Assembly: GCA_902728285.1 (NCBI GenBank)
Contig: CACVBU010000182.1
Location: forward strand, 77,748 to 141,747
DNA from: Clytia hemisphaerica
Lineage: Eukaryota > Cnidaria > Hydrozoa > Leptothecata > Clytiidae
Direction of reading: 5' to 3'
Length of the DNA stretch: 64,000 nt
Under the pieces are notes generated by a model. The model saw only the letters and a program-made list of their open reading frames with translations, made no database searches and was not told the DNA's origin. The position numbers were made by a program, and so were the translations under genes. This document shows, piece after piece, positions 9,793-59,189 of this stretch (the stretch's first letter is position 1; each line of letters opens with the position of its first letter).

Positions 9793-10009
9793 TGATGGTA
9801 TGATAGAATGGTAATATGATAGAATGATGGCATGATAGAACTATGGTATCATAGAATGATGGTATGATAGAATGATGGTATAATAGTAGGATAGAATGGT
9901 AATATGATAAATGATAGAATGATAGTATGAAAGAATGATAGTTTAATTAAATGATAGAATGATAGAATGATAGAGTGATAGAATGATGGTATGATGGTAT
10001 GATCGATGG
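9793..10009. repeat. 8-bp tandem array, A-rich form, first block
   Basis: Units TGATAGAA and TGATGGTA in mixed order, with some shortened units. This is the left edge of the large minisatellite; the preceding sequence is unique. Confidence 0.9.
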
Positions 10010-10803
10010 TATGGAAGTATGCTCGCCTGCTCTAGCCTGCTGGCCTAGCCTGCTGGTCTGCTGCTCGCCTGCTCGCCTGCGAACTTTTGGTATGCTTATG
10101 CTAGAATGCTCGCCTGCTCGTGCTCCCTCTCGCCTGCTTCCTGCTCGAGCCTGCTCGCCTGCTCGCCTGCTCGCCTGCTCGCCTGCTGGCTGCTCGCCTG
10201 CTCTCCTGCTCGCGCTGCTCGCCTGATAGCCTGCTACGACTGCTGCTGCTCGACTGCTCGGCCTGCTCGCTGCTCGCTCGCTGCTCGCCTGCTGGCTCTG
10301 CTCGTCTCGCCTGCTCGCCTGCTCGCCTGCTCGCCTGCTCGCCTGCTCGCCTGCTGGCTATGCTCGCCTGCTCGCCTGCTCGCCTGCTCGCCTGCTCGCC
10401 TGCTCGCCTGCTGGTCTGCTCGCCTGCTGCTCGCCTGCTCGCCTGCTCGCCTGCTGCTGCCTGCTCGCCTGCTGGTCTGCTCGCCTGCTGCTCCTGCTCG
10501 CCTGCTGGTCTGCTCGCCTGCTCGCCTGCTCGCCCTGCTGTATGACTGCTGCCTGAGTCTGCTGCCTGATCGCTGATGGTCTGCTTCTGCTCGCCTCTCT
10601 GCTTCGCCTGCTGCCTGCTAGCCTGCCCGCCTGCTCGCCTGCTCGCCTGCTCGCCTGCTGGTCTGCTGGTCTGCTCGCCTGCTCGCTGCTGCTGTCTGCT
10701 CGCCTGCTGCTCTGCTCGCTGACTGCTCGCCTGCTCGCCTGCTGGTCTGCTCGCCTGCTCGCCTGCTCGCCTGCTCCCTGCTCGCCTGCTATGCTCGCCT
10801 GCT
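10010..10803. repeat. GC-rich octamer block, A-to-C version of the array
   Basis: About 800 bp built from TGCTCGCC and TGCTGGTC. These are exactly the flanking units TGATAGAA and TGATGGTA with every A replaced by C. Mixed forms such as TGATAGCC and TGATGGTC occur inside, and irregular lengths are frequent. The flanks return abruptly to the A-rich form. The likeliest cause is systematic base-calling error in a low-complexity repeat; a real variant block cannot be excluded. Confidence 0.85.
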
Positions 10804-13800: not shown

Positions 13801-15510
13801 AGAATAATAGAATGATAGAATGATAGAATGATAGAATGATAGAATGATTTAATGATGGTATGATGGTATGATAGAATGATAGAATGATAGAATGATGGTA
13901 TGATAAAATGATAGAATGATGGTATGATAGAATGATAGAATGATAGAATGATGGCATGATGGTATGATAGAATGATAGAATGATAGAATGATAGAATGAT
14001 AGAATGATGGTATGATAGAATGATAGAATGATAGAATGATAGAATGATGGTATGATAGAATGATAGAATGATAGAATGATAGATTGATAGAATGATGGTA
14101 TGATGGTATGATAGAATGATAGAATGATAGAATGATAGAATGATAGAATGATTTAATGATGGTATGATGGTATGATAGAATGATAGAATGATAGAATGAT
14201 GGTATGATAGAATGATAGAATGATAGAATGATAGATTGATAGAATGATGGTATGATGGTATGATAGAATGATAGAATGATAGAATGATTGTATGATAGAA
14301 TGATAGAATGATAGAATGATGGTATGATAGAATGATAGAATGATAGAATGATGGTATGATGGTATGATAGAATGATAGAATGATTTAATGATGGTATGAT
14401 GGTATGATAGAATGATAGAATGATAGAATGATGGTATGATAAAATGATAGAATGATAGAATGATGGTATGATAGAATGATAGAATGATAGAATGATAGAA
14501 TGATAGAATGATGGTATGATAGAATGATAGAATGATAGAATGATAGAATGATAGAATGATAGAATGATGGTATGATGGTATGATAGAATGATAGAATGAT
14601 AGAATGATGGTATGATAGAATGTTGGTATGATAGAATGATAGAATGATAGAATGATGGAATGATGGTATGATAGAATGATAGAATGATAGAATGATGGTA
14701 TGATGGTATGATAGAATGATAGAATGATTTAATGATGGTATGATGGTATGATAGAATGATAGAATGATAGAATGATGGTATGATAAAATGATAGAATGAT
14801 AGAATGATGGTATGATGGTATGATAGAATGATAGAATGATTTAATGATGGTATGATGGTATGATAGAATGATAGAATGATAGAATGATGGTATGATAAAA
14901 TGATAGAATGATAGAATGATGGTATGATAGAATGATAGAATGATAGAATGATAGAATGATAGAATGATGGTATGATAAAATGATAGAATGATAGAATGAT
15001 AGAATGATAGAATGATAGAATGATGGTATGATGGTATGATAGAATGATAGAATGATAGAATGATAGAATGATGGAATGATGGTATGATAGAATGATAGAA
15101 TGATAGAATGATGGTATGATGGTATGATAGAATGATAGAATGATAGAATGATAGAATGATGGTATGATAAAATGATAGAATGATAGAATGATAGAATGAT
15201 AGAATGATAGAATGATGGTATGATGGTATGATAGAATGATAGAATGATAGAATGATAGAATGATGGAATGATGGTATGATAGAATGATAGAATGATAGAA
15301 TGATGGTATGATGGTATGATAGAATGATAGAATGATAGAATGATAGAATGATGGTATGATAGAATGATAGAATGATAGATTGATAGAATGATGGTATGAT
15401 AGAATGATAGAATGATAGATTGATAGAATGATGGTATGATGGTATGATAGAATGATAGAATGATAGAATGATAGATTGATAGAATGATGGTATGATAGAA
15501 TGATAAAATG
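10804..15510. repeat. Main 8-bp minisatellite array
   Basis: About 4.7 kb of TGATAGAA with interspersed TGATGGTA roughly every three to six units. Minor variants (TGATAAAA, TGATAGAT, TGATTTAA, TGTTGGTA) form larger recurring patterns; for example, the stretch near 11,267-11,530 recurs near 12,785-13,045. All six reading frames lack stops or stop regularly only because eight is not a multiple of three. Confidence 0.95.
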
Positions 15511-15549
15511 CTGTTATACACATAATATGCGTTTATACATGAAGTCCTN
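15511..15549. other. Array flank ending in a single-N join
   Basis: CTGTTATACACATAATATG and following bases end at GTCCT, then one N at 15,549, then the array resumes. The same flank appears at 21,375 where it continues into unique DNA. The single N looks like a contig join. Confidence 0.8.
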
Positions 15550-17743
15550 AAATGATAGAATGATAGAATGATAGAATGATAGAATGATAGAATGATGGTA
15601 TGATAGAATGATAGAATGATGGTATGATAGAATGATAAAATGATAGAATGATAGAATGAGAGAATGATAGTAAGATTGAATGATAGAATGATAGAATGAT
15701 AAAATGATAGAATGATAGAATGTTAAATGATAGTAAGATAGAATGATAGAATGATAGAATGATGGTATGATGGAATGAGAGAATGATAGTAAGATTGAAT
15801 GATAGAATGATAGAATGATAAAATGATAGAATGATAGAATGATAGAATGTTAAATGATAGTAAGATAGAATGATAGAATGATAGAATGATAGAATGATGG
15901 TATGATAGAATGATAGAATGACGGTATGATAGAATGATGGTATGATAGAATGATAGTAAGATAGAATGATAGAATGATAGAATGATAGAATACTAAAATG
16001 ATGGTATGATAGAATGATAGAATGATGGTATTATAGAATGATAGAATGATAGAATGATGGTATGATGGTATGATAGAATGATAAAATGATAGAATGATAG
16101 AATGATGGTATGATAGATAGAATGATAGAATGAAAAAATGATAGAACGATAGAATGATAGAATGATAGAATGATAGGAAGATAGAATGATAGTAAGATAG
16201 AATGATAGAATGATAGAATAATAAAATGATGGTATGATAGAATGATAGAATGATGGTATTATAGAATGATAGAATGATAGAATGATGGTATGATGGTATG
16301 ATGGAATGATAGAATGATAAAATGATAGAATGATAGAATGATGGTATGATAGAATGATAGAATGAAAAAATGATAGAACGATAGAATGATAGAATGATAG
16401 AATGATAGGAAGATAGAATGATAGTAAGATAGAATGATAGACTGATGGCATGATAAAATGATAGAATGATAGAATGATAGAATGATAGAATGATAGAATG
16501 ATAGAATGATGGTATTATAGAATGATAGAATGATAGAATGATGGTATGGTAGAATGATAAAATGATAGAACGATAGAATGATAGAATGATAGAATGATAG
16601 TAAGATTGAATGATAAAATGATAGAGTGATAGAATGATAGAATGATAGAATGATAGAATGTTAAATGATAGAATGATAATATGATAGAATGATAGAATGA
16701 TGGTATGATAGAATGATGGTAAGATAGAATGATAGAATGATAGAATAATACAATGATGGTATGATAGAATGATAGAATGATGGTATTATAGAATGATAGA
16801 ATGAGAGAATGATAGAATGATAGAATGATAGAATGATAGGAAGATAGAATGATAGTAAGATAGAATGATAGAATGATAGAATAATAAAATGATGGTATGA
16901 TAGAATGATAGAATGATGGTATGATAGAATGATAGAATGAAAAAATGATAGAACGATAGAATGATAGAATGATAGAATGATAGTAAGATAGAATGATAGT
17001 AAGATAGAATGATAGAATGATGGTATGATAAAATGATAGAATGATAAAATGATAGAATGATGGTATGGTAGAATGATAAAATGATAGAATGATAGAATGA
17101 TAGAATGATAGTAAGATTGAATGATAAAATGATAGAGTGATAGAATGATAGAATGATAGAATGATAGAATGTTAAATGATAGAATGATAATATGATAGAA
17201 TGATAGAATGATGGTATGATAGAATGATGGTAAGATAGAATGATAGAATGATAGAATAATACAATGATAGAGTGATAGTATGATAGAATCATAGAATGAT
17301 AGAATGATAGAATGATAAAATGATAGATTGATAGAATGATGGTATGATGGTATGATAGTAAGATAGAATGATAGAATAATGGTATGATAGAATGATAGTA
17401 GTAGAATGATAGAATGATAGAATGATAGAATGATAGAATGATAAAATGATAGATTGATAGAATGATAGTATGATAGTAAGATAGAATGATAGAATAATGG
17501 TATGATAGAATGATAGTAAGATAGAATGATAGAATAATGGTATGATAGAATGATAGTAAGATAGAATGATAGAATGATAGAATGATAGAATGATGGTATG
17601 ATAGAATGATAGAATGATAGAATGATGGTATGATAAAATGATAGAATGATGGTATGATAGAATGATAGAATGATAAAATGATAGAATGATAGAATGATAG
17701 AATGATAAAATGATAGAATGATAGAATGATGGTATGATAAAAT
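15550..17743. repeat. 8-bp minisatellite array, second block
   Basis: TGATAGAA/TGATGGTA units with a different variant set from the main block: TGATAGTAAGATAGAA, TGTTAAATGATAG and TGAAAAAATGATAG are common here and rare elsewhere. This suggests a separate array or allele. Confidence 0.93.
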
Positions 17744-17846
17744 GAGTACTAATACACATAATATGTTTTTATAAAGATAGAATTATATAATGATAAGAGT
17801 ACTATAAGTACTAATACACATAATATGTTTTTATACATGAAGTCCT
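17744..17846. repeat. Two degenerate copies of the array flank
   Basis: AATACACATAATATGTTTTT occurs at about 17,751 and 17,813, the second followed by ATACATGAAGTCCTTGCC. The flank matches that at 15,511 and 21,375, but the downstream sequence after TTGCC is different from that at 21,413. Confidence 0.75.
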
Positions 17847-18480
17847 TGCCTTTTGCCGGCAATCATAAATCATAACATTCGAAAATAATCTAAGTTTTTT
17901 TTCCGGGGGTTTGCAACAGTACTTCCAATGATGTGGATATTATATTTACAGTATTTAACAATAAACTGTGTATGTAATACACTTAGAACTATTTCATTTT
18001 ACAAGAAATTTATATATTTTAGTATCTTCTTGTGTTTTAAACGTCAAAAATTATGCTTCAAATAGTCTTTTTGATCCCCAGTAATCATCAGTGCGGACTT
18101 TGGTTCGTAAACGTTTTGGCGCGTCCTTCTTTCAGCAACATGGAAAAACCAAGAGAAGTTCATCTTTCGAGAAGTTGAAAGACGTCGAAATACGAGCGGC
18201 GAAATTTTTGCTTTTTTTATAAGAAGAACCAGAAAATTTTGGCTCAAGGCGCTCACAGGCATGGGCTGTCTGGACTATTCTTAATTTTTCGAGGTTTTAG
18301 GCTTAATGTTCTTCACGATTAGTTTTTTCCTTAAGAAATTAAATGGCTTAAAATCTATTAAAACCCATTAAAACCAGCAAACGCAGCAAACTCGTGTGTC
18401 TTTTAAAATGTTCCTATAAAAAGCGTGTTAAAAAATTATTAATTAAACATTAAACATTAAACGTAAAAGTGTAAAAGTTC
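17847..18480. other. Unique spacer between arrays
   Basis: AT-rich sequence with no recognised gene. A 72-codon minus-strand frame at 18,044-18,262 has no known motif. Around 18,160 the phrase AGAGAAGTTCATCTTTCGA already resembles the satellite that follows. Confidence 0.4.
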
Positions 18481-19195
18481 GCCTTTCGAAAAGTTGGAAG
18501 ACGCGATATACGAGTTTTAGACATCTTTTTGAAAATTGAAAGTTTCTATTTCAAAACATTTGAAATACAGAGAAGTTCATCTTTCGAAAAGTTGAAAGAC
18601 GTCGATAAACGACTTTTCGACATCTTTTTGAAAATTAAAAGTTCATATTTCAAAACTTTTGAAATACAGAGAAGTTCATCTTTCGAAAAGTTGAAGACGT
18701 CGATAACGACTTTTCGACATCTTTTTGAAAAAATTAAAAAGTTCATATTTCAAAAACTTTTGAAATACAGAGAAGTTCATCTTTCGAAAAGTTGAAAGAC
18801 GTCGATAAACGACTTTTCGACATCTTTTTGAAAAATTGAAAGTTCATATTTCAAAACTTTTGAAATACAGAGAAGTTCATCTTTCGAAAAGTTGAAAGAC
18901 GTCGATAAACGACTTTTCGACATCTTTTTGAAAAATTCAGAGAAGTTCGTCTTTCGAAAAATAGAAAGTTGTTGGAAGATGAATTTTCAACAAAATTCAA
19001 CAAACTTGTAAGTTCGTCTTTCCAAATCTTGGAAAAATAGAGAAGTTCATCTTCCTAAAAGTCGAAAGACATCGAAAGATGAGCTTCCAATATCTTTCAA
19101 CAAATTTGAAACTTCATCTTTCGAAAATTTTGGAAATTTGTCGAAAGTTGATCTTCTCAACATCTTTCGAAAATGGAAAGACAAGATTTCGCCCA
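18481..19195. repeat. ~100-bp tandem satellite
   Basis: Four good copies begin AGAAGTTCATCTTTCGAAAA at 18,571, 18,670, 18,771 and 18,871, giving a period near 100 bp. A shortened copy at 18,941 and diverged units extend to about 19,190. Each unit contains the inverted pair TCGAAAAGT ... ACTTTTCGA, so each can form a small hairpin. Non-coding. Confidence 0.85.
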
Positions 19196-19208
19196 GTGAT
19201 GCTAATTA

Positions 19209-19209
19209 N
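19209..19209. other. Single-N assembly join
   Basis: One N interrupts GCTAATTA-N-AGACTG. It is followed directly by very degenerate octamer array, the same pattern as the join at 15,549. Confidence 0.8.
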
Positions 19210-20840
19210 AGACTGTAGAATGATGGTCTGATGGTATGATTAGACTGATAGAATGATAGAATTATAGAAATGCTGGTATGATAGAATGATAGAATGATAG
19301 ATGACTGATAGATGAGATGATAGAAATGATAGAATGATCGATAGCTGATATAGAATGATAGAATGATAGAATGAATGATAGATGATAGAATGATAGAATG
19401 ATAGAATGATAGAATGATAGATAGATGATAGATGATGGATATGATAAATGATAGAATGATGGATAGAATGATGATGGTATGATAGAATGATAGACTGATA
19501 GAATGATAGATGATAGAAGATGGTATGATATGATAAAATGATAGAATAGAATGATGGTAGAATGATAGAATGATAGAATGATAGAATGATGGATATGATA
19601 GAATGATAGAATGATATGAGATGATAGAATGATAGAATGATAGAATGATATGAATGATAGATAGTATGACATGATAGATGATGACTGATAGAATGATAGA
19701 ATGATGAATGTAGAATGATGGAATGATAGAATGATATGAAATGATAGAAATGATATGATAGAATGATATAGAATGATGATGAATGATAGAATGATAGAAT
19801 GATAGAATGATAGAATGATATGAATGATAGAATAGATGATTATGTATGATGATGATGATGATGATGAATGATGAGAATGATAGAATGATAGATGATGCTA
19901 GATTATAGAATAGAATGATAGAATGATAGAATGATAGAATGATATGAATGATGATAGAATGATGAATGATATGATGGTATGATAGAATGATAGATGATAG
20001 AATGATATGATCTGATAGAATGATAGAATGATAGAATGATGGATGATGATGATAGAATGATAGAATGATAGAATGATGGTATGATGGATGATGATGATAG
20101 CATGATAGATGATGATGATAGATGATAGATGTGGAATGATGGATAGAATGATAGAATGATAGAATGATGATAGAATGATATGAATGATAGATAGAATGAT
20201 AGAATGAGAATGATAGAATGATAGAATGATGGTATGATATGAAGACATGATGAATGAATGATAGAATGATAGAATGATATTGGAATGATGGGTATGATAG
20301 AATGATAGAATGATAGAATGATAGAATGATAGAATGATAGAATGATGGTATGATGGTATGATAGAATGATAGAATGATAGATCTGGTATGCTAGAATGAT
20401 AGAATGATAGAATGATAGAATGATAGATGATGATAGAATGATGGTATGATATGATAGAATGATAGAATGATAGAATGATGGTATGCGAATGATGGTATGA
20501 TAGAATGATAGAATGATTGATAGAATGGATGGGATGATGATAGAATGATGATAGAATGATAGAATGATAGATGATGATGGTATGATATGATAGAAATGAT
20601 ATGAATGATAGAATGATGAAGATGATGATGGTATGATAGAATGATAGAATGATTGATATGATGGATATGATGGTATGATAGATGATAGAATGATTGATAG
20701 AATGCTGGGTATGATAAATGATAGAATGATAGAATGATGAATGATAGATGATGATGAATGATATGAAATGATAGAATGATAGAATGATGGTAGAATGATA
20801 AAATGATAGAATGATAGAATGATAGATGGTCATGATAGAA
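19210..20840. repeat. Degenerate octamer array
   Basis: The same TGATAGAA/TGATGGTA theme but with many irregular unit lengths (GATGATGATG runs, TAGATGATG, isolated C insertions such as TGATGGTCTG). The disorder begins exactly at the N and fades near 20,840, which suggests low-accuracy read sequence used to patch a gap. Confidence 0.85.
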
Positions 20841-21374
20841 TGATGACTAGAATGATAGAATGATGGTATGATGGTATGATAGAATGATAGAATGATAGAA
20901 TGATAGAATGATGGAATGATGGTATGATAGAATGATAGAATGATAGAATGATGGTATGATGGTATGATAGAATGATAGAATGATAGAATGATAGAATGAT
21001 AGAATGATGGTATGATAGAATGATAGAATGATAGAATGATAGAATGATAGAATGATAGAATGATGGTATGATGGTATGATAGAATGATAGAATGATAGAA
21101 TGATAGAATGATAGAATGATATGGATGATGATAGAATGATAGAATGATAGAATGATGGATATGATGGTATGATGATGATAGATATGAGATGATAGAATGA
21201 TAGAATGATGGTATGATAGAATGATAGATGGTATGATAGATTGATAGAAATGTATGGTAGAATGATAGAATGATAGAATGATAGAATGATAGAATGATGG
21301 TATGATGGTATGATAGAATGATAGAATGATAGAATGATAGATTGATAGAATGATGGTATGATAGAATGATAAAA
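20841..21374. repeat. 8-bp minisatellite array, final block
   Basis: Regular units again, with an order very like 14,980-15,510. It ends with the same AAAATGCTGTTATACACA transition as the main block, so the two segments may be duplicate assemblies of one array edge. Confidence 0.9.
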
Positions 21375-21945
21375 TGCTGTTATACACATAATATGCGTTT
21401 ATACATGAAGTCCTTGCCTGTGAATGCCATGTTTGATGTGTAGTTGGTCCTTTCCTATCCTATCCTGGTCGTGTATGTCATTAAATCGTATGTCCACATC
21501 ATATCATGTGGTCGACCACATCTCATGTTCATGGCCAGTGAGTCCGCTTCGCCGCGCTCGCTCGCAACTGCTGATTTCGCAGGCTATTGAAGAACACTCG
21601 TGAACCAAGAAATTTGACACTGGGGAGATAAAAAAATCTCAGCCGGCTATTCCGGTATCATTTAGGATTTTCCGTAATAGTGACTACCCGGTTGGTTTTA
21701 TCGTTCGGTAAATTATCATTTGTGTACGAAATAAACAATAAATTTACTAGTCGTGTCAGCAAAAGTTGTGCAGAGCAGCTTCGTGAGCAAAGCCTCAAGT
21801 CAAGGTCATCACATCGTGCAATTTTCCACGTGTTTCTACATTTCCAGATTCTTACTTCAACTCTTCACCCCAGGTAATATAGCTATCACTTTGTTTCACA
21901 GTCAGCAATATGAAAGGTTTGTCTCTATCAGCAAGATGTAGCTAG
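21375..21945. other. Right flank of the array and unassigned sequence
   Basis: TTATACACATAATATGCG and ATACATGAAGTCCTTGCC lead into non-repetitive DNA. A GC-richer stretch near 21,540-21,570 (CGCTTCGCCGCGCTCGCTCG) has no identified role. Confidence 0.4.
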
Positions 21946-25489: not shown

Positions 25490-26434
25490 TTGTTCGTAGT
25501 GGTTTTGAAATGACCCTCAAGGTATTATATAATTATTTGCTACCGCTCTCTCCGTCTTTCAAGGCTATACAGTTTTACTGATTTGAGTTTTTCCCAATAA
25601 TTAAGATGTCTGAGGGATGGAATTCCATGTAAAAATGATTTCTGAACTTCTTTCAGTTGCTGGATAAGACCGCGCTTCTAGGGAGACCAGAGTTGAGAAC
25701 AGTAGTCCAAATGAAGGATAGCTAGTGCTTTCCATAAAGTTAACATGGTTTCAATTTTCCTTGATTTGAATGTGCGGTATATCCATCTGAGTGTCTAGGG
25801 TGACTCCGAGGTCTTTAACTTTGTCTTTATTTTCGATCAACGTTGCTGTGTCAGAAAATAGCGAGAACTTTGCTTCAGAGTGTCGTTTTTCCCGTAGGCA
25901 AGTGCTCAAATTTAAGACCATTCAGCTGCATGTTGTTGTCTTCTTTCCACTTATAGACAGTGTCTAGATAATTTTGCAGATGATAAACATCCTCCATTTT
26001 GGATATGTTTGGTCGTCAGCAAACGATGCCAATATAGAATGAAGGATGTTGTTATCGATATCTTGAATCATGATTAGGAACAATAGCGGTCCCAGCACAG
26101 ATCCTTGTGGCACACCTGAAAATAACATCCTGTTTTGAGGACAAGGTTGAGTTTACTGAAACTCTCTATGTTCGATGAGTCAAAAAGGATCTGATCCATT
26201 CAAGGAGTATACCGTATATGCCATTTTTCTGAAGCTTGTGTAACAAAATGGTGTGGTCTACTCTATCAAAAGCTTTACTGAAGTCTAAATAGATAACGTC
26301 AATGTTGTTTCCATTCTCTAGGTAATGGATCAGTCTTTCGGTGTGTTGAAGCAATTTATTTAAGTTGTCATATCCTGTAAGCTGCATAATTTCGATGGTT
26401 GTTAAGAAATCTAAGTAATTATTATTTGTTCCTT
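25490..26434 (-). pseudogene. CR1/Jockey-like LINE RT, degenerate, runs into gap
   Basis: The minus strand reads DVIYLDFSKAFDRVDHTILL, HKLQKNGIYGILLEWIRSFL, then VPQGSVLGPLLFL and the catalytic block ASFADD, then the post-palm region with DYCSQLWSP and LKSVKLYSLERR. This is a different LINE lineage from the RT at 24.2-25.5 kb. Frameshifts are present. The 5' part would lie in the assembly gap, so completeness cannot be judged. Confidence 0.8.
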
Positions 26435-27208
26435 NNNNNNNNNNNNNNNNNNNNNNNNNNNNNNNNNNNNNNNNNNNNNNNNNNNNNNNNNNNNNNNNNN
26501 NNNNNNNNNNNNNNNNNNNNNNNNNNNNNNNNNNNNNNNNNNNNNNNNNNNNNNNNNNNNNNNNNNNNNNNNNNNNNNNNNNNNNNNNNNNNNNNNNNNN
26601 NNNNNNNNNNNNNNNNNNNNNNNNNNNNNNNNNNNNNNNNNNNNNNNNNNNNNNNNNNNNNNNNNNNNNNNNNNNNNNNNNNNNNNNNNNNNNNNNNNNN
26701 NNNNNNNNNNNNNNNNNNNNNNNNNNNNNNNNNNNNNNNNNNNNNNNNNNNNNNNNNNNNNNNNNNNNNNNNNNNNNNNNNNNNNNNNNNNNNNNNNNNN
26801 NNNNNNNNNNNNNNNNNNNNNNNNNNNNNNNNNNNNNNNNNNNNNNNNNNNNNNNNNNNNNNNNNNNNNNNNNNNNNNNNNNNNNNNNNNNNNNNNNNNN
26901 NNNNNNNNNNNNNNNNNNNNNNNNNNNNNNNNNNNNNNNNNNNNNNNNNNNNNNNNNNNNNNNNNNNNNNNNNNNNNNNNNNNNNNNNNNNNNNNNNNNN
27001 NNNNNNNNNNNNNNNNNNNNNNNNNNNNNNNNNNNNNNNNNNNNNNNNNNNNNNNNNNNNNNNNNNNNNNNNNNNNNNNNNNNNNNNNNNNNNNNNNNNN
27101 NNNNNNNNNNNNNNNNNNNNNNNNNNNNNNNNNNNNNNNNNNNNNNNNNNNNNNNNNNNNNNNNNNNNNNNNNNNNNNNNNNNNNNNNNNNNNNNNNNNN
27201 NNNNNNNN
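26435..27208. other. Assembly gap (774 N)
   Basis: A run of N. Nothing can be said of its content, though a LINE enters it from the left. Confidence 1.
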
Positions 27209-48887: not shown

Positions 48888-48894
48888 TTCTTTT
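48888..48894. repeat. Target-site duplication, left (TTCTTTT)
   Basis: Seven bases identical to 59,183-59,189, immediately outside the two inverted repeats of the large transposon. Confidence 0.85.
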
Positions 48895-48923
48895 CAGGGT
48901 TTGAGAAAAGAGGACGGAAAATG
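48895..48923. repeat. Left terminal inverted repeat
   Basis: 29 bp, begins CAGGG, exact reverse complement of 59,154-59,182. Pairing stops abruptly at base 30. Confidence 0.97.
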
Positions 48924-48981
48924 GTCTATTCATGTATTGAAACTAGGTTTGATGATTATTGTTCTCGGGTTTTCCTTCGTT

Positions 48982-49012
48982 TGACGTCATAGCCTATTGT
49001 TCATCAACCAAT
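48982..49012 (+). promoter_or_regulatory. Candidate promoter: CRE-like site and CCAAT box
   Basis: TGACGTCA (48,982-48,989, a perfect palindromic CREB/ATF-type site) and CAACCAATCAG (CCAAT at 49,008-49,012, NF-Y-type context) lie 75-105 bp upstream of the ATG at 49,088. This spacing fits a promoter carried by the element. Assignment is by motif only. Confidence 0.5.
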
Positions 49013-49087
49013 CAGCGCCCGGGGACATTTGTTTATGTTTTTAGCGATACGTACACAAGAGTTCAAGTTCAAACTCAAAAAAGCAAA

Positions 49088-51068
49088 ATGGCGTCCGCAA
49101 GTGATGAATTAATGAGCGATTTTGATTTAAATTTTGATGCTGAGCTGCCAGAGGAACTTGTGTCGATTGAAAATTTGATATTAGATGAAGATGTAGAAAT
49201 TGATGAAGATGAGGAAATACATTTTGATGTGGAGCCAATAATAGTTGGTGAAGATATTATCCAGGAGGCAGATGAACTTGAAATGGACATTGAGTCAGAA
49301 TCTGCCAACTCTGAAATTTGTATAGTTTTTACAAGCGACACAGATGTGGCAATCGTCAAACCCTATACTGAAATAGTTGAACACAAACAAGAAACAAAGA
49401 AAAACCTAATTTATATTGTAAACATTGTGGCAAGCAGTATGTTATTAAGAAGTACTTGATAGATCACGAAGAATCATGTGGTGAGTAGCTTTACCTATGT
49501 ATAACAAAAGGTTTTAGTTTTTTCTGGTTTGTTTTACTTTGATTGCCTGCTCAGGACTGTAGAAATTTTTTGATACTTGTGTATTTAAAGGGATAATCAG
49601 ATGTCTTGAGATATTTAGATTAGAGAAACCTTTTGTGTAAAACCTCAAAGTATTTTTTGTGTAACAATTTTCCAGCTTCCAGATATCAAAATTTGAAATT
49701 TTTGAAAATGGGTTACTGTACACGGTTTTTATGTTGAAATTCAATTTTTTTCAACCAAAAACTTGTAACTTAAATATCTCGACTTTGGAAAATATTTTGA
49801 GATTTGCTCGATCAAGACAATAGAAGAATCCCACATGCCAAACATTACAAACCATCTGATTATCCCTTTAAAGACAAATCACTTAAATCCTACCTCTTGA
49901 GAAGGGAAAGGAACTGAATGGGGGATGTCGACACTTGGCCAACTCACAGGGATACTGTTCATATTGACTATCGTATATATTGTAATTGTAATCAAATAAC
50001 TTGCATCCTATAATGACATGTTGACTGTAATCATGATTTATTTCTATTTCAGGATCCAAATCAACCAAGAACCTTTCAGAATGGAGGAGCAATATACAAG
50101 AACACACATTAAGCTTTTTCAAAAATGCTGTAAGAGAGGCCGCAAAAGACAGAATATTTATTCTCAAAAAGGAATCTGTCATCCATCAACTTATAAAATA
50201 TTTGACATCTAAACTGGAAGAAAATGACAACGCTATTTTAATTTATTTCAAACAATTCACCATCTTCATGCTCCAGTGTGTACCAGACCACCCCTCAAAA
50301 ATTGAAAGCTGTACGTTCAAACTGGAAGAGGTTTTCAGTAGTAAAACGATATGGAAATTTTGGAGACAAATATTCAAGGACTTTCCAGAGAGCAAAGAAC
50401 TTCGAATTTTACTCCATTACATCCTGCACAAGCTTCACAAACAGATCTGGAATTATCGGAATAATCTTGTTGAAAACAGGCCTGAAACAAAAGCACTCAG
50501 TTTGAAACTTACACTCCAGGAGGAGAATATATTGCGATACGTTGCAGGCTACATCCCATATGTACTTTTGAAAAAGCTTGAAGATAGGAAGGAATCAGAT
50601 TCTAAAACTGCATTGTTGCTAGTGCTCCATAGCTGGAGTCAAGAACAAGGAGGGAAAGTTATCCCTTTCCTAGAATACACTCGTTCGTGGACTGAAAAGA
50701 TCAACCGTGGAGGAGCATATGTCATCAATGATGAGTTTTACATTTTCATTCGCCGTTTGGAAAATGTTATTCGTACTGTTCTAAACAGAAATTTGATGGT
50801 GCATTATGCTGGAGAGGATTTAAGGCCTTTAATTTTTGAGAAAATGGACAAGAGTAGTCTTGTGAGAATGTCATGGGACTCTTTGACAAAAGATTTAAGT
50901 GACTCTCTCTCCAACTATTTGAAGAGTGCTGTTTTCAAGATATGGACCAATGTTCGAGCTAATGCTTTCATTAAGGCTTGGGTTACGATCATTAAACTTA
51001 AGAAGAACAATAAAACAAATATTGATGATAAGGGAAAACCAGCACTGAGAAAACAGCTTTCAGGGTAG
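49088..51068 (+). CDS. Two-exon zinc-finger protein of the transposon, unknown role
   Basis: Exon 1 starts AAAATGGCG (ATG at 49,088), the best context available, and encodes an acidic N-terminus rich in D and E. It ends in one C2HC zinc finger (YCKHCGKQYVIKKYLIDHEE, then SC; C-x2-C-x12-H-x3-C). The finger lies one frame away from the ATG frame; a single missing A in the run at about 49,401 would reconcile them. Donor TGTG/GTGAGT (exon end 49,480) and acceptor TTTCTATTTCAG (exon 2 at 50,053) join in phase 1. Exon 2 is open for 337 codons and contains the strongly patterned stretch LQEENILRYVAGYIPYVLL and a later NRGGAYVINDEFY. AATAAA follows at 51,182. The product is about 470 residues. I recognise the YVAGYxP pattern from invertebrate hypothetical proteins but know no function. 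Placement suggests an accessory, DNA-binding or regulatory factor for the neighbouring transposase. Confidence 0.75.
49481..50052 (+). other. Intron of the zinc-finger gene
   Basis: GTGAGT donor, TTTCTATTTCAG acceptor, 572 bp, of which 279 bp is a later MITE insertion. Confidence 0.8.
49589..49867. mobile_element. TTAA-type MITE nested in the intron
   Basis: TTAA at 49,585-49,588 and 49,868-49,871. The ends AGGGATAATCAGATG and CATCTGATTATCCCT are exact complements. It sits inside the intron, leaving splice sites intact. An eroded copy lies at 30,600-30,840. TTAA use fits piggyBac or Kolobok machinery. Confidence 0.85.
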
Positions 51069-52720
51069 AATAAGGTTTATTGTTAGTGGTTTAAAAATGG
51101 TACAAATTCTGTGTAAAATCCTCATGGTTTTGGTTTCTCTGAAACTGAAACTTTTATAGTTGAAAAATTATTTTAATATTCAATAAATGTCCTAATTTTG
51201 AAAAATAGATCAAAATAATTTGTTTTAAAAGTGGCAAAAATCGTGAGGAATTTTATGCATAAATTTTGTTATCATTTTCTGAACGCTAAAAGACTTGATG
51301 CTTGTGTTTAAATGCTTTTAAGGTTTGTTTCAAATAAATTGACAGTCAGGACAATCCTTTTGCAGGAACATTTTTTGAATACATTGTCAATTATGTCATG
51401 GCTTTTTAGTCAATTTACAGTGAAATCTTGCAATCCTTTCAATATGTATGGTTTAAAGCTGATTTCCAGTATTTCAGTGCAAAAAATAAAATCGAAAATA
51501 ATAAATAGAAAAGATTTTGAAAAATAATTTGAGCAGATGAAGGCTTTGTAATATTAATTAACACTCAGAACTATTATTCCAGCAAGGTATTTTTTCAATC
51601 ATCTTTTTCACTCAAGGGCAATGTACCAAAATGTGTGGACTAACAATTTATTTGAAGCAAACTTTGATAAAGTCGATTTTCTTTTGTTTGCACCAAAACC
51701 TATCTACTACTGTATGCTGTTTTCTTTTGTTGTTTTTCCAAATTTGATTGTTTGGTATTTTAACCTTTTTCCCTAATTCTTAATGGAGTGAAATATTTGT
51801 CTATTTTTGATATTGACTGGTTTTCTTGTACCAAGTAACTAATTTTTTTGTTGACCTTTTGAAATTCTGGAAGAATTTGTTATAAATGAACAATTACAAA
51901 AATGGTCTTTTAAATTCTTTTTACCAAAGCAATGACGCACTATTCAGTACTTTCCCCAAAACTATTACGCTTTTAAGAATAAGATATTTTGATGTCATAC
52001 TTATGGACTGCATTTTTTTCGTATTATGTCATATTTCACTTTTTTTCTTGTAATACGTATTTACATATATGTTTGTTTAAATCATTTATTAACAGATTTA
52101 CATATCTTGGAAGATAAAAAATGTGAAAATATAAGATAATAACAGTACAGATTAAAATAAAAATGTTTTTTTTTTCCTACTTGCCAAATCACAATTAAAG
52201 ACTCTGATGCCCTTGAAAGAAATTTGTGACTTTTTAACTTTTCGAACACTTTTAATGAAAATCTTTTTATTTAAAATTTCGAAAAATATACATTTATTAA
52301 ACAGTTTATTTAAAATTTCAAAAATAGAAAAAATATAAAAGTTTACAGTCAGATAAAAAAAAGAAGGAGCCGAAAATTTATAGGTTGTTAAAATCAGAAT
52401 TCCAGGAAACGTGTCGGCTGTATTAAAATCTTAAAAAAATGTTCTCCAAAAATAGACAAAAAAACAGGATGTGAGTATGAAACTCATGTCCTGTATTCGT
52501 GTTCTATTTTCAGGTAATCTTAATTCCTTATGAAAATTTATGGTCAAACACAATTTAAATAAATAAAATGATTATTTAGAGTCAATAGAGTCAAGGATTA
52601 TTGAATGCTGCGTATGTGAAAATACCTAAAAAAATTATCTAGATGTACACGATTTATATTTTTTCTATAAAAAATCCCCTAAACGGTTGATATTTATATA
52701 CTATTCTTGAAATTAATAAG
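51069..52720. other. Intergenic spacer between convergent transposon genes
   Basis: Very AT-rich. AATAAA at 51,182 fits polyadenylation of the plus-strand gene. TTTATT at about 52,266-52,312 would be AATAAA for the minus-strand gene. No other frame or structure seen. Confidence 0.5.
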
Positions 52721-55700
52721 TCATTTCTCTAAATTTCCAAAAAGACCATCATCATCAGCGTCTTTTTTCTTCTTTTTCTCGATTTTCGGACGTTTTGGCA
52801 AAGGTGTCATGTCATGGATATTAATCCGGGGTTTTTGTTTTGGTTTGTTGGTACCAGAGGTGTTACCACGCATAACCAGAATAGCTTGGTCCTTTGCAGC
52901 AATCAATTTCCCCTCACTTGATCCATACTGCCCTAGACTAGGATTGTCACAGCCACCAAGTCTAGCTCTTTGCTTACCTATAGATATAAAGCAATCAAGA
53001 TGAAGAGAAGCCAGTAATAAATTTCAAGTCGAATCTTTACTTGCAGTAATTTTACAACTGACTTTGCATTTGATCAGTACTCTCACGTTTACGTTTACCC
53101 TCATAATAAAAATTTTGTAAGGCTCAAAGTGTCAAAATTAAGAACGATATAGTACAGCTCTGACTACGGGATTACTTAGTAGTAACATTGGGTGAAAATC
53201 GAGTTAGCTTTTTTCTGTACATAAAAAGTAAGTAAGAGCAATTTGAGGTGTTGAAAAAATATGAGCAGTTGAGTCTCCACGAAAGTTAACTGTTTGTTAT
53301 AAAATGTGTTTACTAACCAAAATGTTCTTCGATTGGATCTTGGTTAAATCGATCGGTCAAAACGAATTCTATTCCCGGTTCTTTGAGAAGTATCGGAATC
53401 AATTTGATGGTAGAGTGAACTAAAAAGGCAGAAAAACAGTTTATTTCGAGAAAAAGCTGGGAAAGGAAGCTGCTTCGATTGACGAACGTTTGAGAATATA
53501 CACGTTTGAGAATATTTTGCATAAAATGGCGTTAAACACTATTTGTTTAATGATTACAGAAAATATAAATACCAGTAATTCTTAATCCATTTAGAGTTTG
53601 AGGAGAAAGGCACATTCTCAATTTTCTCTTATCATCAACATCAGGTATTGCTTTGATTTCTGCTTGCCAATCGTTTAAGAATTTGAGAAAATTTGACTCC
53701 AACCACTGCAAAATAAAGAAAAAATATCAAAGATGTGAAAAAGTTCTAAATTAATATCTTTCGATCTAATAACCCCTTAGAAAAAGCATCTCTTTGATAT
53801 GATAAAAGCTTATATTCTTACATCCAAACGTCCATCTGGTTTTAAAGGATTAGGCTTTTTGAACGGCTTCAAGTTTTCTTTGTTCGTGTGAATTCCTTCA
53901 ACTGTAGATTTGACGTTCATGATATCGAAAAATTCGTCCATTTTAAGGAATAATTTTCTGGTCGAGACAGTAACATCAGGATTGTGCTGTTCCATGGCAT
54001 CTGCGACTGACTTGCTTAGAGCCTAAAACGAGGAACACATTCAGTTATTGCAGTAGGTCATATAGTAGGCTGCTTAAAGATTTGCCGTTAAAACATTATA
54101 GAATGTTTTTAAACTAGAAATCAATAGTAGAGACAACATAATTACAACTGAAGTTTTGTGCAAAGTTCTGTCCAAAAGCCTAAAAACAAATTATGGTTAT
54201 GGTTCATAATACTAGAATTCTTACTTGAGCTGCTAAAGCAACATTCATTCTTGCTCGTGGTGTCAAACGCACATGTTCAACAGTCAGTTTCGTTTGATGA
54301 AATCCAGGTGCATCTCGATCTATACCAACGTCGTATTCTAATAGTCCAATGACATGCTGCCAGCTGATCTCTTTCCCATCAAGCTAAAACAGAACAAAGT
54401 AAAGAGTCACATCCAAAAAATATTATTAGATTTCTAATACTATTTCTTCAATTTTTCTAAAGTTTGGATACTGTGATAGCAATGTGCTATAAATATAGAC
54501 AACAAAACGCCTTTTTAAAAAGAAACCGGAAAGAAATCCGATAAGAACAAGCTAAATTATATTCTTACAAAGAGTTCTCTGGTGTTCTGATGAGCATGTG
54601 AATTTGCTACACAATTCCTTGTAGTTTTGATTAAATGAGGAACATCACAAATAAAGTAAATTCGACGACTTGGGTCGAACTTGTTGATTGTTGAATAAAC
54701 AACGCCATCGATAATGTTTTCACTTCTTTTGTGGTAGTTGTAAAACTTCCTGTTTGGTGAAGCCCCGTCGCTGACAACAAACCACACCTACAAACATGAA
54801 AAAATCTTAAAATTTACAGAACAACTTCCCTAAAAGGACATAGAAAGGGCTTTATCATATGACAATGGATTTATAGTATAAAGGTATCAAGCAGTTAAGC
54901 TAAAATAAAAAATTAATTTACTTGAAAGAATATAAAAAAGTATACCTTGAAGTCGAGGAATTCCAAAATTCGGATAGCTTCCCAAATGATATGATACAGC
55001 TCATACCCCTTGACACCAGCCCCTGCAAAATAGGCAACAGGATAATTAAGATGAAAGTTAATGGCTCGCACCATTAAAGTGAGTACGTGAGTTGCAATAG
55101 GGGGATGCTCGTCTTGGTTAGTTACACGGCGATCAAAACAGGTTATCTCATTATTGATGTCTCCCAGATCGCAAAATCCAACTATCTTGCCAGAATTCTT
55201 ACTGTACACAATGCCAGATTTAATTTTCATTTCATCGTGTACAAGACCAACATGCAAATGTTGTTGGTTCTCCGTTAGTCGAAGTAGATTCTCCAATACA
55301 TCAGGATTGAATCCAGTGTTATGTGTGGTAAAATTGACATATTTATCCAAAGTTTTTTTGGAGGGCAGGACCAAAAAGCCAGAATTTCGTAGATGCTCAT
55401 ATGCCCCAGAGGATTTAAGGTATATGGATATACACCATCGAAGCATCACAGGGTGCCATCTCATAGTTCGTTTGTTTTCCAATGATACCTGCTTTTTCTG
55501 CTGTTCCCAAAGCAAGTGGATTGGACTGTCCTTATCAAAAGGTGAATCATTTGTTGAAACTACATTATTGCATACTTCTGTATAAAGAGATAAAGCAGAG
55601 AAAGAATTATTGCATGCAATGAGATGTTGATCATTATAATGAGTCTTTTGTGCAACATCTTGTTCTTGTTGTCACATTGAAAACAAAAATAACTCACCCT

Positions 55701-56949
55701 TTTGGGGGAGTGAATTATTGTGTAGAAGAAGTTTTTCTTGAGAGAGTGAATTGTTGCATAGAATAAGTTTTCCTTGAGATCATCAGTACAGAGTTTTGGT
55801 AGGTGAAAGAGAAAAAAGGAAAAATTATGACCAAACCTTTAAAAAACATCAAAAAATCAAAAATTCTTTTTCAACAAACCTTTCAACAAATTGTTCTCCA
55901 CAGCACATCCTTCATCTTCAACCAATTGACTTACAAAGGTTCTCATGGACTCAAGGCTACGCTTCAACGATTTGATCTGTTTTTGCTGATCAGTTGCCTT
56001 TTTCATCAAATTATCTTTTGAGAGATATTTGTTAGCTGTGAATTTAGATGGCAGTTCTGGGCTGACCGAACGACGATAAACAATATTGTGCAAATAGTGA
56101 CGGTATTTGATACATGGTTCGCATCTACTAACATCATTTCTCACCAACAACTCACAATCTTTAACACGGATAGTTTTGAGGTCTTCCACACCTGATAATG
56201 ATGCATTTTCGATGGTAGCTTTTATATTGTTTTCTTTATCCTTGAATGAACATTCTTTAGAATTTATTTTCTCATCAATAAGGTTTTTAAAGTCCTCATT
56301 TCCAGGACAAAGTTTGGATGCACTTATTGTTTCAAAAATATACAAAGCATTTTCCACATTGATTACATCAGGTAGAAATTGCAAAACTTTATTATTTCTT
56401 TCAATCAAGTTTTTCCCATGGTACAATCTCCACTTGCCATCAATCTCAATTTCAAATCTGAACCCCATCACAAAACCTTTATCAATAAATGCAAATGTGT
56501 AAGTTGGATCTCCAAACTTGCTCAGATCCATTAAATTACATTGATTGGCAGCTTCAGTTAATGAAAATGGAGATCTTGAATTTTGATTCCTTTGATCAGG
56601 AGAACTTTCACTAGTCGTTTTCGATTCTTTTATAATTCTAAATCCTTTATTTCTCACTTTTGGTAAATTACAAATATTGCAACTAGTGTCAGAGTGAGGT
56701 TGAAAAACTGGTAGAACATCTGAAGTGGTATGCGTTGCCTTATTGGCATCATCTAATTTCTTACGACAGGTGTCACATAATTTGGGTGGATGGATACCTG
56801 TGACATCATCTTTTAAGGTATAACCGAAAAGTTCTTGAATCGTCCTTTCATATGTTGATGCCAATTTTGGATTATAGGACTTAAAACGCTTGATTACAAT
56901 CTTGTTACCACAGGTTCGACATATTTCATTCAACTTGGAAAGATGTTTC
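52721..56949 (-). CDS. P-superfamily transposase with RAG1 N-terminal-like zinc module
   Basis: Eight exons join in frame on the minus strand: 56,949-55,880, 55,577-54,946, 54,787-54,569, 54,383-54,225, 54,022-53,822, 53,705-53,573, 53,419-53,318 and 52,977-52,721 (TGA). All introns are GT-AG and phases match at every joint. With a tentative first exon at 59,086 the product is about 934 residues. The N-terminus has CRTC, then GIHPPKLCDTC, then FQPHSDTSCNIC, the cysteine/histidine spacing of the RAG1 N-terminal zinc region. A CEPC motif and a coiled coil (about residues 320-355) follow. Next comes the P/THAP9-type core: RWHPVMLRWCISIYLKSSGA, LPSKKTLDKY, HDEMKIKSG, VVSDGASPN, DVPHLIKTTRN, LSPQTLNGLR and FNQDPIEEHFG. 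The D of HDEM, the D of SDG and an E of NQDPIEE are the likely catalytic triad (inference from RNase H-fold order). The C-terminus is a lysine-rich, possibly nuclear-localising tail. No stop or frameshift was seen. Confidence 0.88.
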
Positions 56950-59054
56950 CTGAATGAAACAAAATTTTATTGATTTTAATATATTTTAAGAAAAATATAG
57001 AACAAACTTGGATTTCAAGTCTTTACAAATTAAAAGAGCTAACCCTGACAAAGTCATTTGTCCATAATAACATATTTTCCATTATGGGTTAGGTTAGGTT
57101 AAGTTAAGTCATTTGCATTATTTAACCTAGATTGATTAGTTAACAAAATCTTTAAGAGTAAAACTTTCTCAGAACATGTATATGCCCATATATACGTGTG
57201 AATGTGAAACAATTTCAAATTTTGCCAACAGAAATGTTAAAATCACGAAAATGTATTAAATGAAACTGAAGTTCATACTTACTCAGATGTCTCCATTTAG
57301 ACAGTTATAAAAATGTTGTTTGTCTGTATATATATGCCAATTATGTTTTTATTTTATCTTAAAAATTTCTAGGATAAAAAAGAGTCAATGGTATACACTC
57401 CAAATACATATTGATCTTATCATTTAGGACTAACAAAATTTTATGCATATATACCTGTATTTAATCTCATTATATCAACAGCTTATATTGCCCTCAAGTT
57501 TAACAAAATTTAAAAAATTAAAAATCTTAAACATTCTATCATTCTGTTTTTCGCTATATATGGCTGTTGACTGTATTCTAATAAACTGAAGCTCTCAATG
57601 TTATTTTAGTCCCTGTAATGGATAATGAATAATGTGTGTAGCACATATCCAGTTTGCAGAGTACAGTACGACAGTATTGCAGAAATCACTGTGATCCATC
57701 TGGGGGGGACAGTTACATCAATATGCCTTCTTACCTGTCTTTAAAAATATAAATAAAAGTAATCAAGGAAAAGGACGCGAAAAAAAAAGACATAAGTGTG
57801 AGAACAGAGTAATCAAACTCGTTAGAAAAAGTACCATTAGAAGTCATAAAAAATCAACCTGAATAAATGCAATCGAAATCCCAGAGAACTTCATAATTCC
57901 CCAAACAACATTACATTACTATGTCAAACTCCCATTACATAAATTTTACAATTACGTCAGAGTAGACTACGCTCGCCACCGAAGAGGTTTATTTGGAAAG
58001 GGTAATTACATTTTATTGTTCGCTTCTTTTTTAAAGATTGGCCGGGTTGGAAAAGTATGAATTTCTTTGTACATATTTTACCTACCCCAAATATTTAGGA
58101 GGCTGAGTTTTAAACAAATGGTCAAGTTGAAACGAACGATAAATGTATCAAGGTCTGTTTTATTTACCCCCTGGTGACTTAACAAAAGAGACTTAACTCG
58201 ATGTTACAATCCAATTATTGGAAGTTTTTCTCGGCCTTTTTATAATGAGCGAGACATACGTTCTCTGATTACGCAATTTTCATATTGACATTTTCGAGGC
58301 ATTTTGATGTAACTGGGGGGAGGGGCATTTAGGCAAATATTTCCTCACTCATTGCAAAACTAGTGGAAATAAAATCATTTTCTGGCTTTTAAACAGTTTT
58401 TCTGAATAAATGTATACTTTAAGGGCAAGGACTTCAATGCTAAAAATGTTTTGAGGGAGGGGGCAAACCCAATTAAGCTCTGAAAACTGCCAGGCGGTCA
58501 CATAATCTCACACAGCCTTATTGCCATTCTTACGCTTTGAACAAATTTCCAATACAATTGAGGATATTAAAAATAGAACATAGTGTGATGGTGCTCTTAA
58601 TTTGAGCAAAATAATTTCGATATCAACTTTTCTGCATTACATTTGAGGGTAAAAAGAGCCAATTCGTTGTTTGAAAAGACAGTAAAAAGTACAAGTTCTA
58701 GGAACTGTCCGAGTTGAAAATGGCCTCCCCGAGTGTATAAATATATATTTCCAGATAGCCTCATGTTAAAGGATTCCAAAAATCTTTGGTTTGAGCACTG
58801 TATACTTATCTTTCTTGTGAAATGGACATCTTTCCAAACACCACTTTTGAACCAACCAGTCTGCACTGCCTATTTACAGTCTTGAATAACTTTTGAACAA
58901 CACAGGGTTTTCCCCAGATTTCTTTTGCAAAGGAAAGCCAAATGTTTGAACAAACCAATCAAACAAGAGATATGTCTAAAATTGTGAGGAAAACCCTCAA
59001 AAAAGAAGAGAAAGTTGACTGAACATGAACAGCACTGCACATAATCGCCATCAC
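56950..59054 (-). other. Probable large first intron of the transposase gene
   Basis: The acceptor TTTTGTTTCATTCAG borders exon 56,949. The stretch is AT-rich. Frames at 58,597-58,866 and 58,870-59,076 show no motifs. A GGTTAGGTTAGGTTAAGTTA run near 57,086 is a short TTAGG-like patch. Confidence 0.45.
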
Positions 59055-59086
59055 CATTTTTTTCCCCATCTCTCAAAGGCCGCCAT
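59055..59086 (-). CDS. Tentative first coding exon of the transposase gene
   Basis: AAAATGGCGG lies 97 bp inside the right end. It would encode MAAFERWGKK plus two bases, then a weak donor TG/GTGATG. Its phase is exactly what the acceptor at 56,950 (TTCATTCAG/G) needs, giving a junction tryptophan. The context mirrors the AAAATGGCG start of the plus-strand gene. Only transcript data can confirm it; other small exons in the 2.1-kb intron are possible. Confidence 0.4.
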
Positions 59087-59153
59087 TTTATTCACATCGC
59101 CCGGAACATTCAAAGGGCGCCGATTTGAATAGAAAAACAATAAAACCCGAAAT

Positions 59154-59182
59154 CATTTTCCGTCCTCTTTTCTCAAACCCTG
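59154..59182. repeat. Right terminal inverted repeat
   Basis: 29 bp, exact complement of the left repeat, ends CCCTG followed by the TTCTTTT duplication. Confidence 0.97.
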
Positions 59183-59189
59183 TTCTTTT
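59183..59189. repeat. Target-site duplication, right (TTCTTTT)
   Basis: Matches 48,888-48,894. The next base on each side differs, so the duplication is 7 bp rather than the 8 bp known for the Drosophila P element. Confidence 0.85.

What the first reader, a model, noticed from the sequence alone, without database searches (positions are those of the whole stretch)
48895..59182. Complete 10.3-kb two-gene transposon bounded by perfect 29-bp inverted repeats
Seen: exact 29-bp TIRs starting CAGGG, 7-bp TTCTTTT duplication, two convergent spliced genes filling the interior. The minus-strand gene is open through eight exons with matching phases. Such completeness is rare in this otherwise decayed landscape and suggests a recently active family. 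A P-type element that also carries a separate zinc-finger gene is not a layout I know.
Basis: partly seen in the sequence, partly recalled or inferred. Interest (0 to 1): 0.92.

Follow-up and report, generated by a model that had tools for sequence, protein, structure and literature searches.

The report
Two-gene P transposon with RAG1-like domain
This is a nearly intact, recently mobile piece of jumping DNA whose cut-and-paste enzyme is of the P-element type but starts with a zinc-binding part like that of the antibody-gene recombinase RAG1, and which carries a second, conserved gene of its own.

Summary
The element at 48,895-59,182 is real: exact 29-bp inverted repeats and a 7-bp duplication. 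The four copies whose both ends I read have four different 7-bp duplications; 6 of 12 other end-bearing loci fetched hold pieces of both genes. The minus-strand gene has nine exons (934 aa). It has a P-element catalytic core (Pfam 2e-27; P transposase in PDB 6e-9), but in place of THAP its N-terminus is a three-part zinc module matching RAG1's N-terminus (isolated module above Pfam cut-off; PDB profile 5e-8). A relative about 33% identical has module and catalytic domain in one uninterrupted frame. The plus-strand gene (469 aa) has lost one base in the window copy; the C659 copy has both frames open. Both genes show purifying selection between subfamilies (Ka/Ks about 0.1). The second protein is a large family: 49 of 105 loci have a convergent P-type transposase within 12 kb, 4 same-strand, 0 divergent, 52 none; about 0.9 expected by chance. 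So this is a clade, not a chance host gene. A 2015 paper stated that such a domain occurs in no transposons outside the Transib/Chapaev group. The second protein's role is inferred.

The parts
48888..48894 (.). left copy of 7-bp target-site duplication TTCTTTT
48895..48923 (+). left 29-bp terminal inverted repeat
48965..48973 (+). candidate subterminal motif TCGGGTTTT (71st base from the left end; 33rd base from the right end)
   Evidence: weak: in 4 of 4 right ends but only 4 of 9 left ends printed, and other shared 8-mers occur
49088..49480 (+). second gene, exon 1: acidic N-terminus and CxxC-H-C zinc finger; frame broken by a one-base shortfall near 49400 in this copy
50053..51068 (+). second gene, exon 2: conserved domain, 119 matches in the genome
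52721..52977 (-). transposase exon 9 (C-terminus)
53318..53419 (-). transposase exon 8, catalytic glutamate E846 (DRFNQDPIEEHFG)
53573..53705 (-). transposase exon 7
53822..54022 (-). transposase exon 6, GTP-binding insertion domain
54225..54383 (-). transposase exon 5, GTP-binding insertion domain
54569..54787 (-). transposase exon 4, presumed catalytic D585 (VSDGAS) and CDVPHLIK motif
54946..55577 (-). transposase exon 3, catalytic D482 (HDEMK), RNase H N-terminal domain
55880..56949 (-). transposase exon 2, begins with the RAG1-type zinc module (CRTC, LCDTC, CNIC)
57710..58315 (.). nested short insertion in intron 1 (begins CAGTTACATCAA), absent in the C82 and C659 copies
59055..59086 (-). 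transposase exon 1 (MAAFERWGKK)
59154..59182 (-). right 29-bp terminal inverted repeat
59183..59189 (.). right copy of 7-bp target-site duplication

Best explanation
A recently mobile DNA transposon of the P/THAP9 type, belonging to a large, old clade with two features of its own. (1) The transposase carries a RAG1-type three-part zinc module (C1-C2-C3) where classical P transposases carry THAP, followed by the P-type RNase H core with a GTP-binding insertion. (2) A second, convergent gene encodes an acidic, single-finger, probably mostly helical protein kept under purifying selection. Shown: anatomy, copies, 7-bp duplications, domain matches, selection, recurrence of the layout. Inferred: it moves by P-type, GTP-dependent cut and paste. 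The RAG1-type module most likely assembles or places the transposase (protein contacts, dimerisation), and the second protein is a transposition cofactor that supplies part of the end recognition or regulation that THAP gives elsewhere (about 0.4 for that specific division of labour).
For: Copies and duplications. Both frames open in the C659 copy. Ka/Ks of C659 against C935 and C604 is 0.119 and 0.116 (transposase) and 0.085 and 0.082 (second gene). P core: TNP-like_RNaseH_N 2.4e-27, GBD 2.9e-12; PDB P transposase 5.8e-9. D230 and E531 of the P transposase correspond to D482 and E846 (read by eye off); D303 to D585 by motif only. RAG1 module alone, Pfam RAG1_imp_bd, cut-off 23.3 bits: window 31.7 and C604 26.9, C394 44.8, C435 39.0 and C254 36.1. 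PDB profile: RAG1 5e-8. In C394 the module and the catalytic domain share one 642-aa frame. Layout: of 105 second-protein loci, 49 convergent with a P-type core within 12 kb, 4 same strand, 0 divergent, 52 none; 0.9 expected. A P transposase with no second gene found within 12 kb (C432) has THAP (1 of 1 looked at).
Against: 52 of 105 second-protein loci show no P core within 12 kb; at least two of them (C341, C41) do have one by tblastn, but how many are solo is unknown. 101 of 150 P-core matches have no convergent second gene found. Six of the 49 are this family's own copies and some others are near-duplicates, so 49 is not 49 lineages. The RAG1 match falls below cut-off in long sequence (21.3 bits for the 934-aa window protein, 21.4 for the long C604 exon; the window exon ORF gives 24.6). 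The PF12560 map of the genome, which would test the module's association with the layout, did not complete. No transcript, activity or binding data. The second protein has only a sub-threshold zf-BED match (0.026). Structure models were unusable (mean pLDDT 40.5 and 37.8).
Confidence: 0.85

Rival explanations
1. The N-terminal module is an ordinary ZAD (zf-AD) zinc domain, and the RAG1 resemblance is the general CxxC...CxxC pattern.
For: zf-AD also matches, always under its cut-off of 28 bits: 22.4 and 20.8, 27.6. ZAD and RAG1-N may themselves be related (my inference).
Against: RAG1_imp_bd scores higher in each protein scanned and above cut-off for the five isolated modules. The match runs on through the third pair (PH...CxIC). 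In the PDB profile search RAG1 has 5e-8 and the next other protein, a fly chain that I recall to be a ZAD protein, 0.11.
Confidence: 0.12
2. The second gene is a regulator or repressor, or a transcription activator of the element (acidic N-terminus plus finger), not part of the transposition machine.
For: 35 of the first 105 residues are D or E and 4 are K or R; one finger; no enzymatic domain found above cut-off.
Against: The long second-exon domain is strongly conserved (29 invariant columns in 12 members). Nothing tested separates the two roles.
Confidence: 0.35
3. The second gene is a captured host gene that hitch-hikes in a few copies.
For: 52 of 105 second-protein loci have no P core found within 12 kb.
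Against: Ka/Ks 0.08-0.10 for the second gene against C935, C604 and C303; convergent linkage in 49 loci, 0 divergent, 4 same strand; loci that keep the layout go down to 27% identity.
Confidence: 0.03
4. The second protein's helical part is a Ku80 C-terminal-like domain that recruits double-strand-break repair to the excision site.
For: Top PDB profile hits are Ku80 C-terminal chains, E 0.07-0.13.
Against: Not improved by restricting the profile (0.061, with a de novo designed protein at 0.089); no Pfam support beyond 1 of 12 members for Ku_C at 0.32.
Confidence: 0.04

Closest known systems
P elements / THAP9 (Drosophila P, zebrafish Pdre2)
   Same: RNase H core with GTP-binding insertion, catalytic D-D-E, terminal inverted repeats, short target duplication (PMC7776569 and PMC10983969 passages)
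   Different: No THAP domain found; RAG1-type zinc module instead; second convergent gene; 7-bp not 8-bp duplication; about 9.65 kb
Galileo (P superfamily, Drosophila)
   Same: P-superfamily transposase; 7-bp flanking sequences (PMC3573991 passages)
   Different: Long internally repetitive inverted repeats; I did not check it for a second gene or a RAG1-type module
RAG-like transposons (RAG1L/RAG2L, ProtoRAG)
   Same: RAG1-type C1-C2-C3 zinc motifs in the N-terminus; two convergently oriented genes inside one transposon (PMC7204232 listing and passages)
   Different: Catalytic core is Transib/RAG1, not P; 5-bp duplications (PMC8355894 passage); second gene is Kelch-PHD RAG2L
Chapaev / Chapaev3 / TransibSU with 'Chapa' domain
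   Same: RAG1-N-type zinc domain at the transposase N-terminus (PMC4411706 passages)
   Different: Different catalytic superfamily; that paper states the Chapa domain is encoded in no other known transposable elements
N-RAG-TP of Aplysia
   Same: A transposon made of RAG1 N-terminal-like sequence (seen only as described in PMC8355894)
   Different: The original paper is not held; whether it carries a P core is unknown to me. It could be a member of this clade

Membership tests
P superfamily | RNase H core with P-type N-terminal part | tested here: met
   PF21787 2.4e-27; PDB 6p5a 5.8e-9
P superfamily | GTP-binding insertion domain | tested here: met
   PF21788 2.9e-12. By eye, 7 of the 8 GTP residues named in PMC7776569 are kept; the lysine at 400 is N
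P superfamily | catalytic D-D-E | tested here: met
   D482 and E846 aligned with D230 and E531 (by eye; the D230 segment scores only 3.0 bits); D585 equated with D303 by motif only, the printed alignment does not pair them
P superfamily | helix-turn-helix domain | tested here: inconclusive
   PF12017 E 0.062, below cut-off
P superfamily | N-terminal THAP domain | tested here: not met
   no THAP match at E<=1; RAG1_imp_bd instead
P superfamily | 8-bp target duplication | tested here: not met
   7 bp in 4 of 4 copies with both ends read; 7-bp flanks are also described for Galileo
RAG1 / RAG-like | C1-C2-C3 zinc motifs of the N-terminal region | tested here: met
RAG1 / RAG-like | Transib/RAG1 catalytic core and 5-bp duplication | tested here: not met
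   no RAG1-core family at E<=1; duplication is 7 bp
Chapaev 'Chapa' elements | short (2 to 5 bp) target duplication of the CMCT group | tested here: not met
   7 bp; 2 to 5 bp from PMC12730594 passages
Chapaev 'Chapa' elements | sequence similarity to Chapaev N-termini themselves | not tested
   no Chapaev protein was at hand; equivalence rests on PMC4411706's statement that Chapa is part of RAG1's N-terminus

The most novel reading that the evidence does not exclude
This is a clade of two-subunit transposons, a RAG1-headed P transposase plus a dedicated partner protein, organised like RAG1L/RAG2L but built on an unrelated catalytic core. RAG1's N-terminal region is therefore a mobile module exchanged among transposon superfamilies, and this clade (or a relative such as N-RAG-TP) may be a donor or recipient in the history of RAG1.
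Probability: 0.25. Interest if true: 0.9.

Novelty: new variant of a known kind. Interest (0 to 1): 0.75.

Why it matters
Where the N-terminal region of RAG1 came from is debated: it is absent from Transib elements (PMC8355894, PMC7204232 passages), and a 2015 analysis held that the corresponding zinc domain occurs in no other mobile elements than the Transib/Chapaev group (PMC4411706 passages). Finding it fused to a P-type core, in one open frame in a deep relative, breaks that rule and gives a concrete comparison set. It also adds a second superfamily in which a transposase with a RAG1-type N-terminus travels with a conserved convergent partner gene, and near-identical copies with which the need for the partner protein can be tested.

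Tried and rejected
Protein database search: switched off, so occurrence in other animals is untested. Viral contigs: no relatives of the second protein or of exon 3 confirmed. AlphaFold of single window sequences: 117-aa zinc region pLDDT 40.5, 337-aa second-protein exon 37.8; unusable, no fold search made. Ku80 C-terminal similarity: lead only. Pfam on 12 second-protein members: 11 families, each matching 1 of 12 members, best SAM_1 at 0.0006; taken as chance. Similarity between the second protein and transposase exon 3: not significant (E 0.23). NCBIfam: only matches far below cut-off. Kinship of the finger ORF at 2157-2705 with the second protein: not significant (E 0.076). Empty site of the window copy: joined-flank query not answered, so empty sites of the element itself are not shown; the empty site of the nested insertion is. 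Genome-wide map of the RAG1-type module (PF12560): not completed.

Paper searches for prior description: (9 of 10 allowed). From the titles and abstract openings listed (13 of 14 papers, 15 of 31, all in the others), none pointed to a P-type element with a RAG1-type N-terminus or a second gene; I saw passages, not whole texts, of eight papers. The library holds open-licence PMC papers only; Repbase and Repbase Reports are not in it, so these elements may be listed there.
Full report
Observation. The inverted repeats 48895-48923 / 59154-59182 are exact over 29 bp and have no other match in the window with up to 3 mismatches. TTCTTTT flanks both ends. Inside are two convergent genes. The minus-strand gene has nine exons (59055-59086, 55880-56949, 54946-55577, 54569-54787, 54225-54383, 53822-54022, 53573-53705, 53318-53419, 52721-52977), all introns of the model GT-AG, giving an uninterrupted 934-aa protein. 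The plus-strand gene has two exons (49088-49480, 50053-51068). In the window copy one base is missing in an A run near 49400; the seven other copies aligned do not share that gap.

Copies. The left 321 bp hit 18 places in the window's own genome, 417 Mb in 951 contigs (some places are pieces of one copy). I fetched 12 other left-end loci. Coding pieces of both genes lie in 6 of 12 (C82, C659, C134, C935, C604, C303, the last cut by its contig end). C649 shows only the second gene. C500 and C234 keep fragments of the second gene; C250 and two loci on C791 match only at the end in the fetched stretches. C82 and C659 are 98.6-99.7% identical to the window copy over their aligned blocks. Both ends could be read in four copies, and each has its own 7-bp duplication: TTCTTTT (window), GAAATTC (C82), ATGACGC (C659), TTTTATT (C935). 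In C659 both frames are open, with one amino-acid difference from the window transposase; in C82 both genes carry frame breaks. The family has therefore moved recently. No empty site of the element itself was shown, because the joined-flank query did not complete.

Selection. Against the diverged C935 copy, the C659 transposase gives Ks 0.54, Ka/Ks 0.119 (922 codons), and the second gene Ks 1.0, Ka/Ks 0.085 (468 codons). Against C604 the ratios are 0.116 and 0.082, against C303 0.087 (212 codons) and 0.103. Among younger copies the signal is weaker: C134 0.215 and 0.218, C649 0.243 (second gene), and C82 0.526 for the transposase on only 2 synonymous and 4 other changes, with 2 and 0 for its second gene (simple Nei-Gojobori counts, gapped or stop codons left out). 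Within the transposase against C935, exons 3-9 are at 0.00-0.06, the exon with the zinc module at 0.21, and the 10-codon first exon at 0.51.

Transposase. Pfam finds the P-type RNase H N-terminal domain (2.4e-27) and the GTP-binding insertion domain (2.9e-12); the RNase H C-terminal piece (0.003) and the helix-turn-helix (0.06) are below cut-off. The best PDB match is the Drosophila P transposase complex, 5.8e-9. The THAP domain, which PMC7776569 lists as the N-terminal DNA-binding domain of P transposase (passages), is not found. In its place residues 12-105 match RAG1's N-terminal region: CRTC, LCDTC with a preceding IHP, and PH...CNIC correspond to three CxxC pairs of RAG1. Scores for the isolated module against Pfam RAG1_imp_bd (cut-off 23.3): window 31.7, C604 26.9 bits. 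In the spliced 934-aa protein and in the long C604 exon the score is 21.3-21.4, under the cut-off; in the window exon ORF it is 24.6. Against the PDB sequences, RAG1 chains are the best hits: 5.2e-5 for the single sequence and 5e-8 for a three-sequence profile, next other protein 0.11.

Deep relatives. The second protein's exon finds 119 matches in the genome (174 candidates, 119 scored), from 100% down to 24% identity, many in open frames. Twelve members, the window's included, align with 29 invariant columns. In the 1.5-kb flanks of the best 30, three distant members (C394, C341, C41) show a P transposase facing them. C394 was read further. Its transposase is about 33% identical over the main matched stretch, and a single 642-aa open frame holds both the RAG1-type module (44.8 bits when isolated, 32.6 in the long stretch) and the P core (2.2e-21), so the fusion does not depend on predicted splicing. 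Two more two-gene loci, C435 and C254, have the module at 39.0 and 36.1 bits; a P transposase with no second gene found nearby, C432, has THAP (25.3 bits, cut-off 23.9). That is one control only.

Layout. PF21787 gives 150 scored matches of 247 candidates. The 119 second-protein matches merge into 105 loci. Taking the nearest P core within 12 kb, 49 are convergent, 4 on the same strand, 0 divergent, 52 have none; about 0.9 of any orientation are expected for uniform placement. Six of the 49 are copies of this family (C130, C134, C604, C659, C82, C935), and some of the rest look like duplicates of one another (C435/C781, C419/C294, the two on C753), so the number of independent lineages is smaller. 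The 52 include C341 and C41, which do have a transposase, so the linkage is undercounted by an unknown amount. Conversely 101 of 150 P cores have no convergent second gene found.

How it probably works. Cut and paste by a P-type, GTP-assisted transposase follows from the conserved core; this is inference from the family. The RAG1-type module stands where THAP would be, so end binding must be done differently: by the module, by the weak helix-turn-helix region, or by the second protein's finger. A TCGGGTTTT motif lies at different distances from the two ends (71st and 33rd base) in the window, C659, C82 and C935 copies, reminiscent of the unequal spacing of P-element binding sites (PMC7776569). 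But of nine left ends printed the other five (C604, C303, C250 and two on C791) lack the exact motif in the 130 bases shown, and other shared 8-mers occur, so it is weak evidence. I think a cofactor role for the second protein most likely; a regulator is the main rival. No known fold was established for it.

Comparison. RAG-like transposons also hold two convergently oriented genes and RAG1L keeps C1-C3 (PMC7204232, abstract opening and passages), but their core and second protein differ. PMC4411706 (passages) calls this N-terminal zinc part the Chapa domain and says it is in no other known transposable elements. The present family contradicts that for the RAG1-type module, on the assumption that Chapa and RAG1_imp_bd describe the same domain, which I did not test directly. 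PMC8355894 (passages) describes N-RAG-TP, a sea-slug transposon made of RAG1-N-like sequence; it may be a relative, and the original paper could not be read. Seven-base flanks are on record for Galileo of the P superfamily (PMC3573991 passages).

Verdict. A new variant of a known kind: a clade of two-gene P-type transposons with a RAG1-type N-terminus (module seen in 5 of 5 two-gene elements in which I scanned it alone: window, C604, C394, C435, C254). The anatomy is firm, the mechanism of the second gene open. Novelty is limited by what could be searched: nine literature searches, no Repbase, no other animal genomes.

Noticed in passing
window 57703-58321: Nested 606-bp insertion in transposase intron 1 with its own terminal repeats (CAGTTACATCAATATGCCT / AGGCATTTTGATGTAACTG) and a 6- to 7-bp G-rich duplication; the C82 and C659 copies show the empty site. 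Possibly a non-autonomous relative of another P-type family.
   Followed up: partly
G000 C870:32974-47261: Six P-type RNase H domains in a row at about 2.8-kb spacing, each with two TAA stops inside: a tandem array containing P transposase sequence.
   Followed up: no
G000 C753:1344845-1357495: Two two-gene loci in mirror orientation with identical scores: an inverted duplication or a palindromic insertion.
   Followed up: no
L036 (G000 C796:1024640-1026645): Two second-protein matches of different lineages (34% and 80% identity to the query) lie side by side on one strand.
   Followed up: no
L020 and L021 (G000 C500 and C234): Two related end-bearing copies share the same 15 bases of left flank shown, so they may be a segmental duplicate or allelic contigs rather than two insertions.
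   Followed up: no
window 2157-2705 (-): Open frame with a C2H2-like finger (by eye) and a further stretch; no significant similarity to the second protein by BLASTP.
   Followed up: partly
window about 10000-21500: Very long low-complexity array translating as SFYHSII repeats in several frames, a minisatellite; separately, a stretch without readable letters at about 26400-27200.
   Followed up: no
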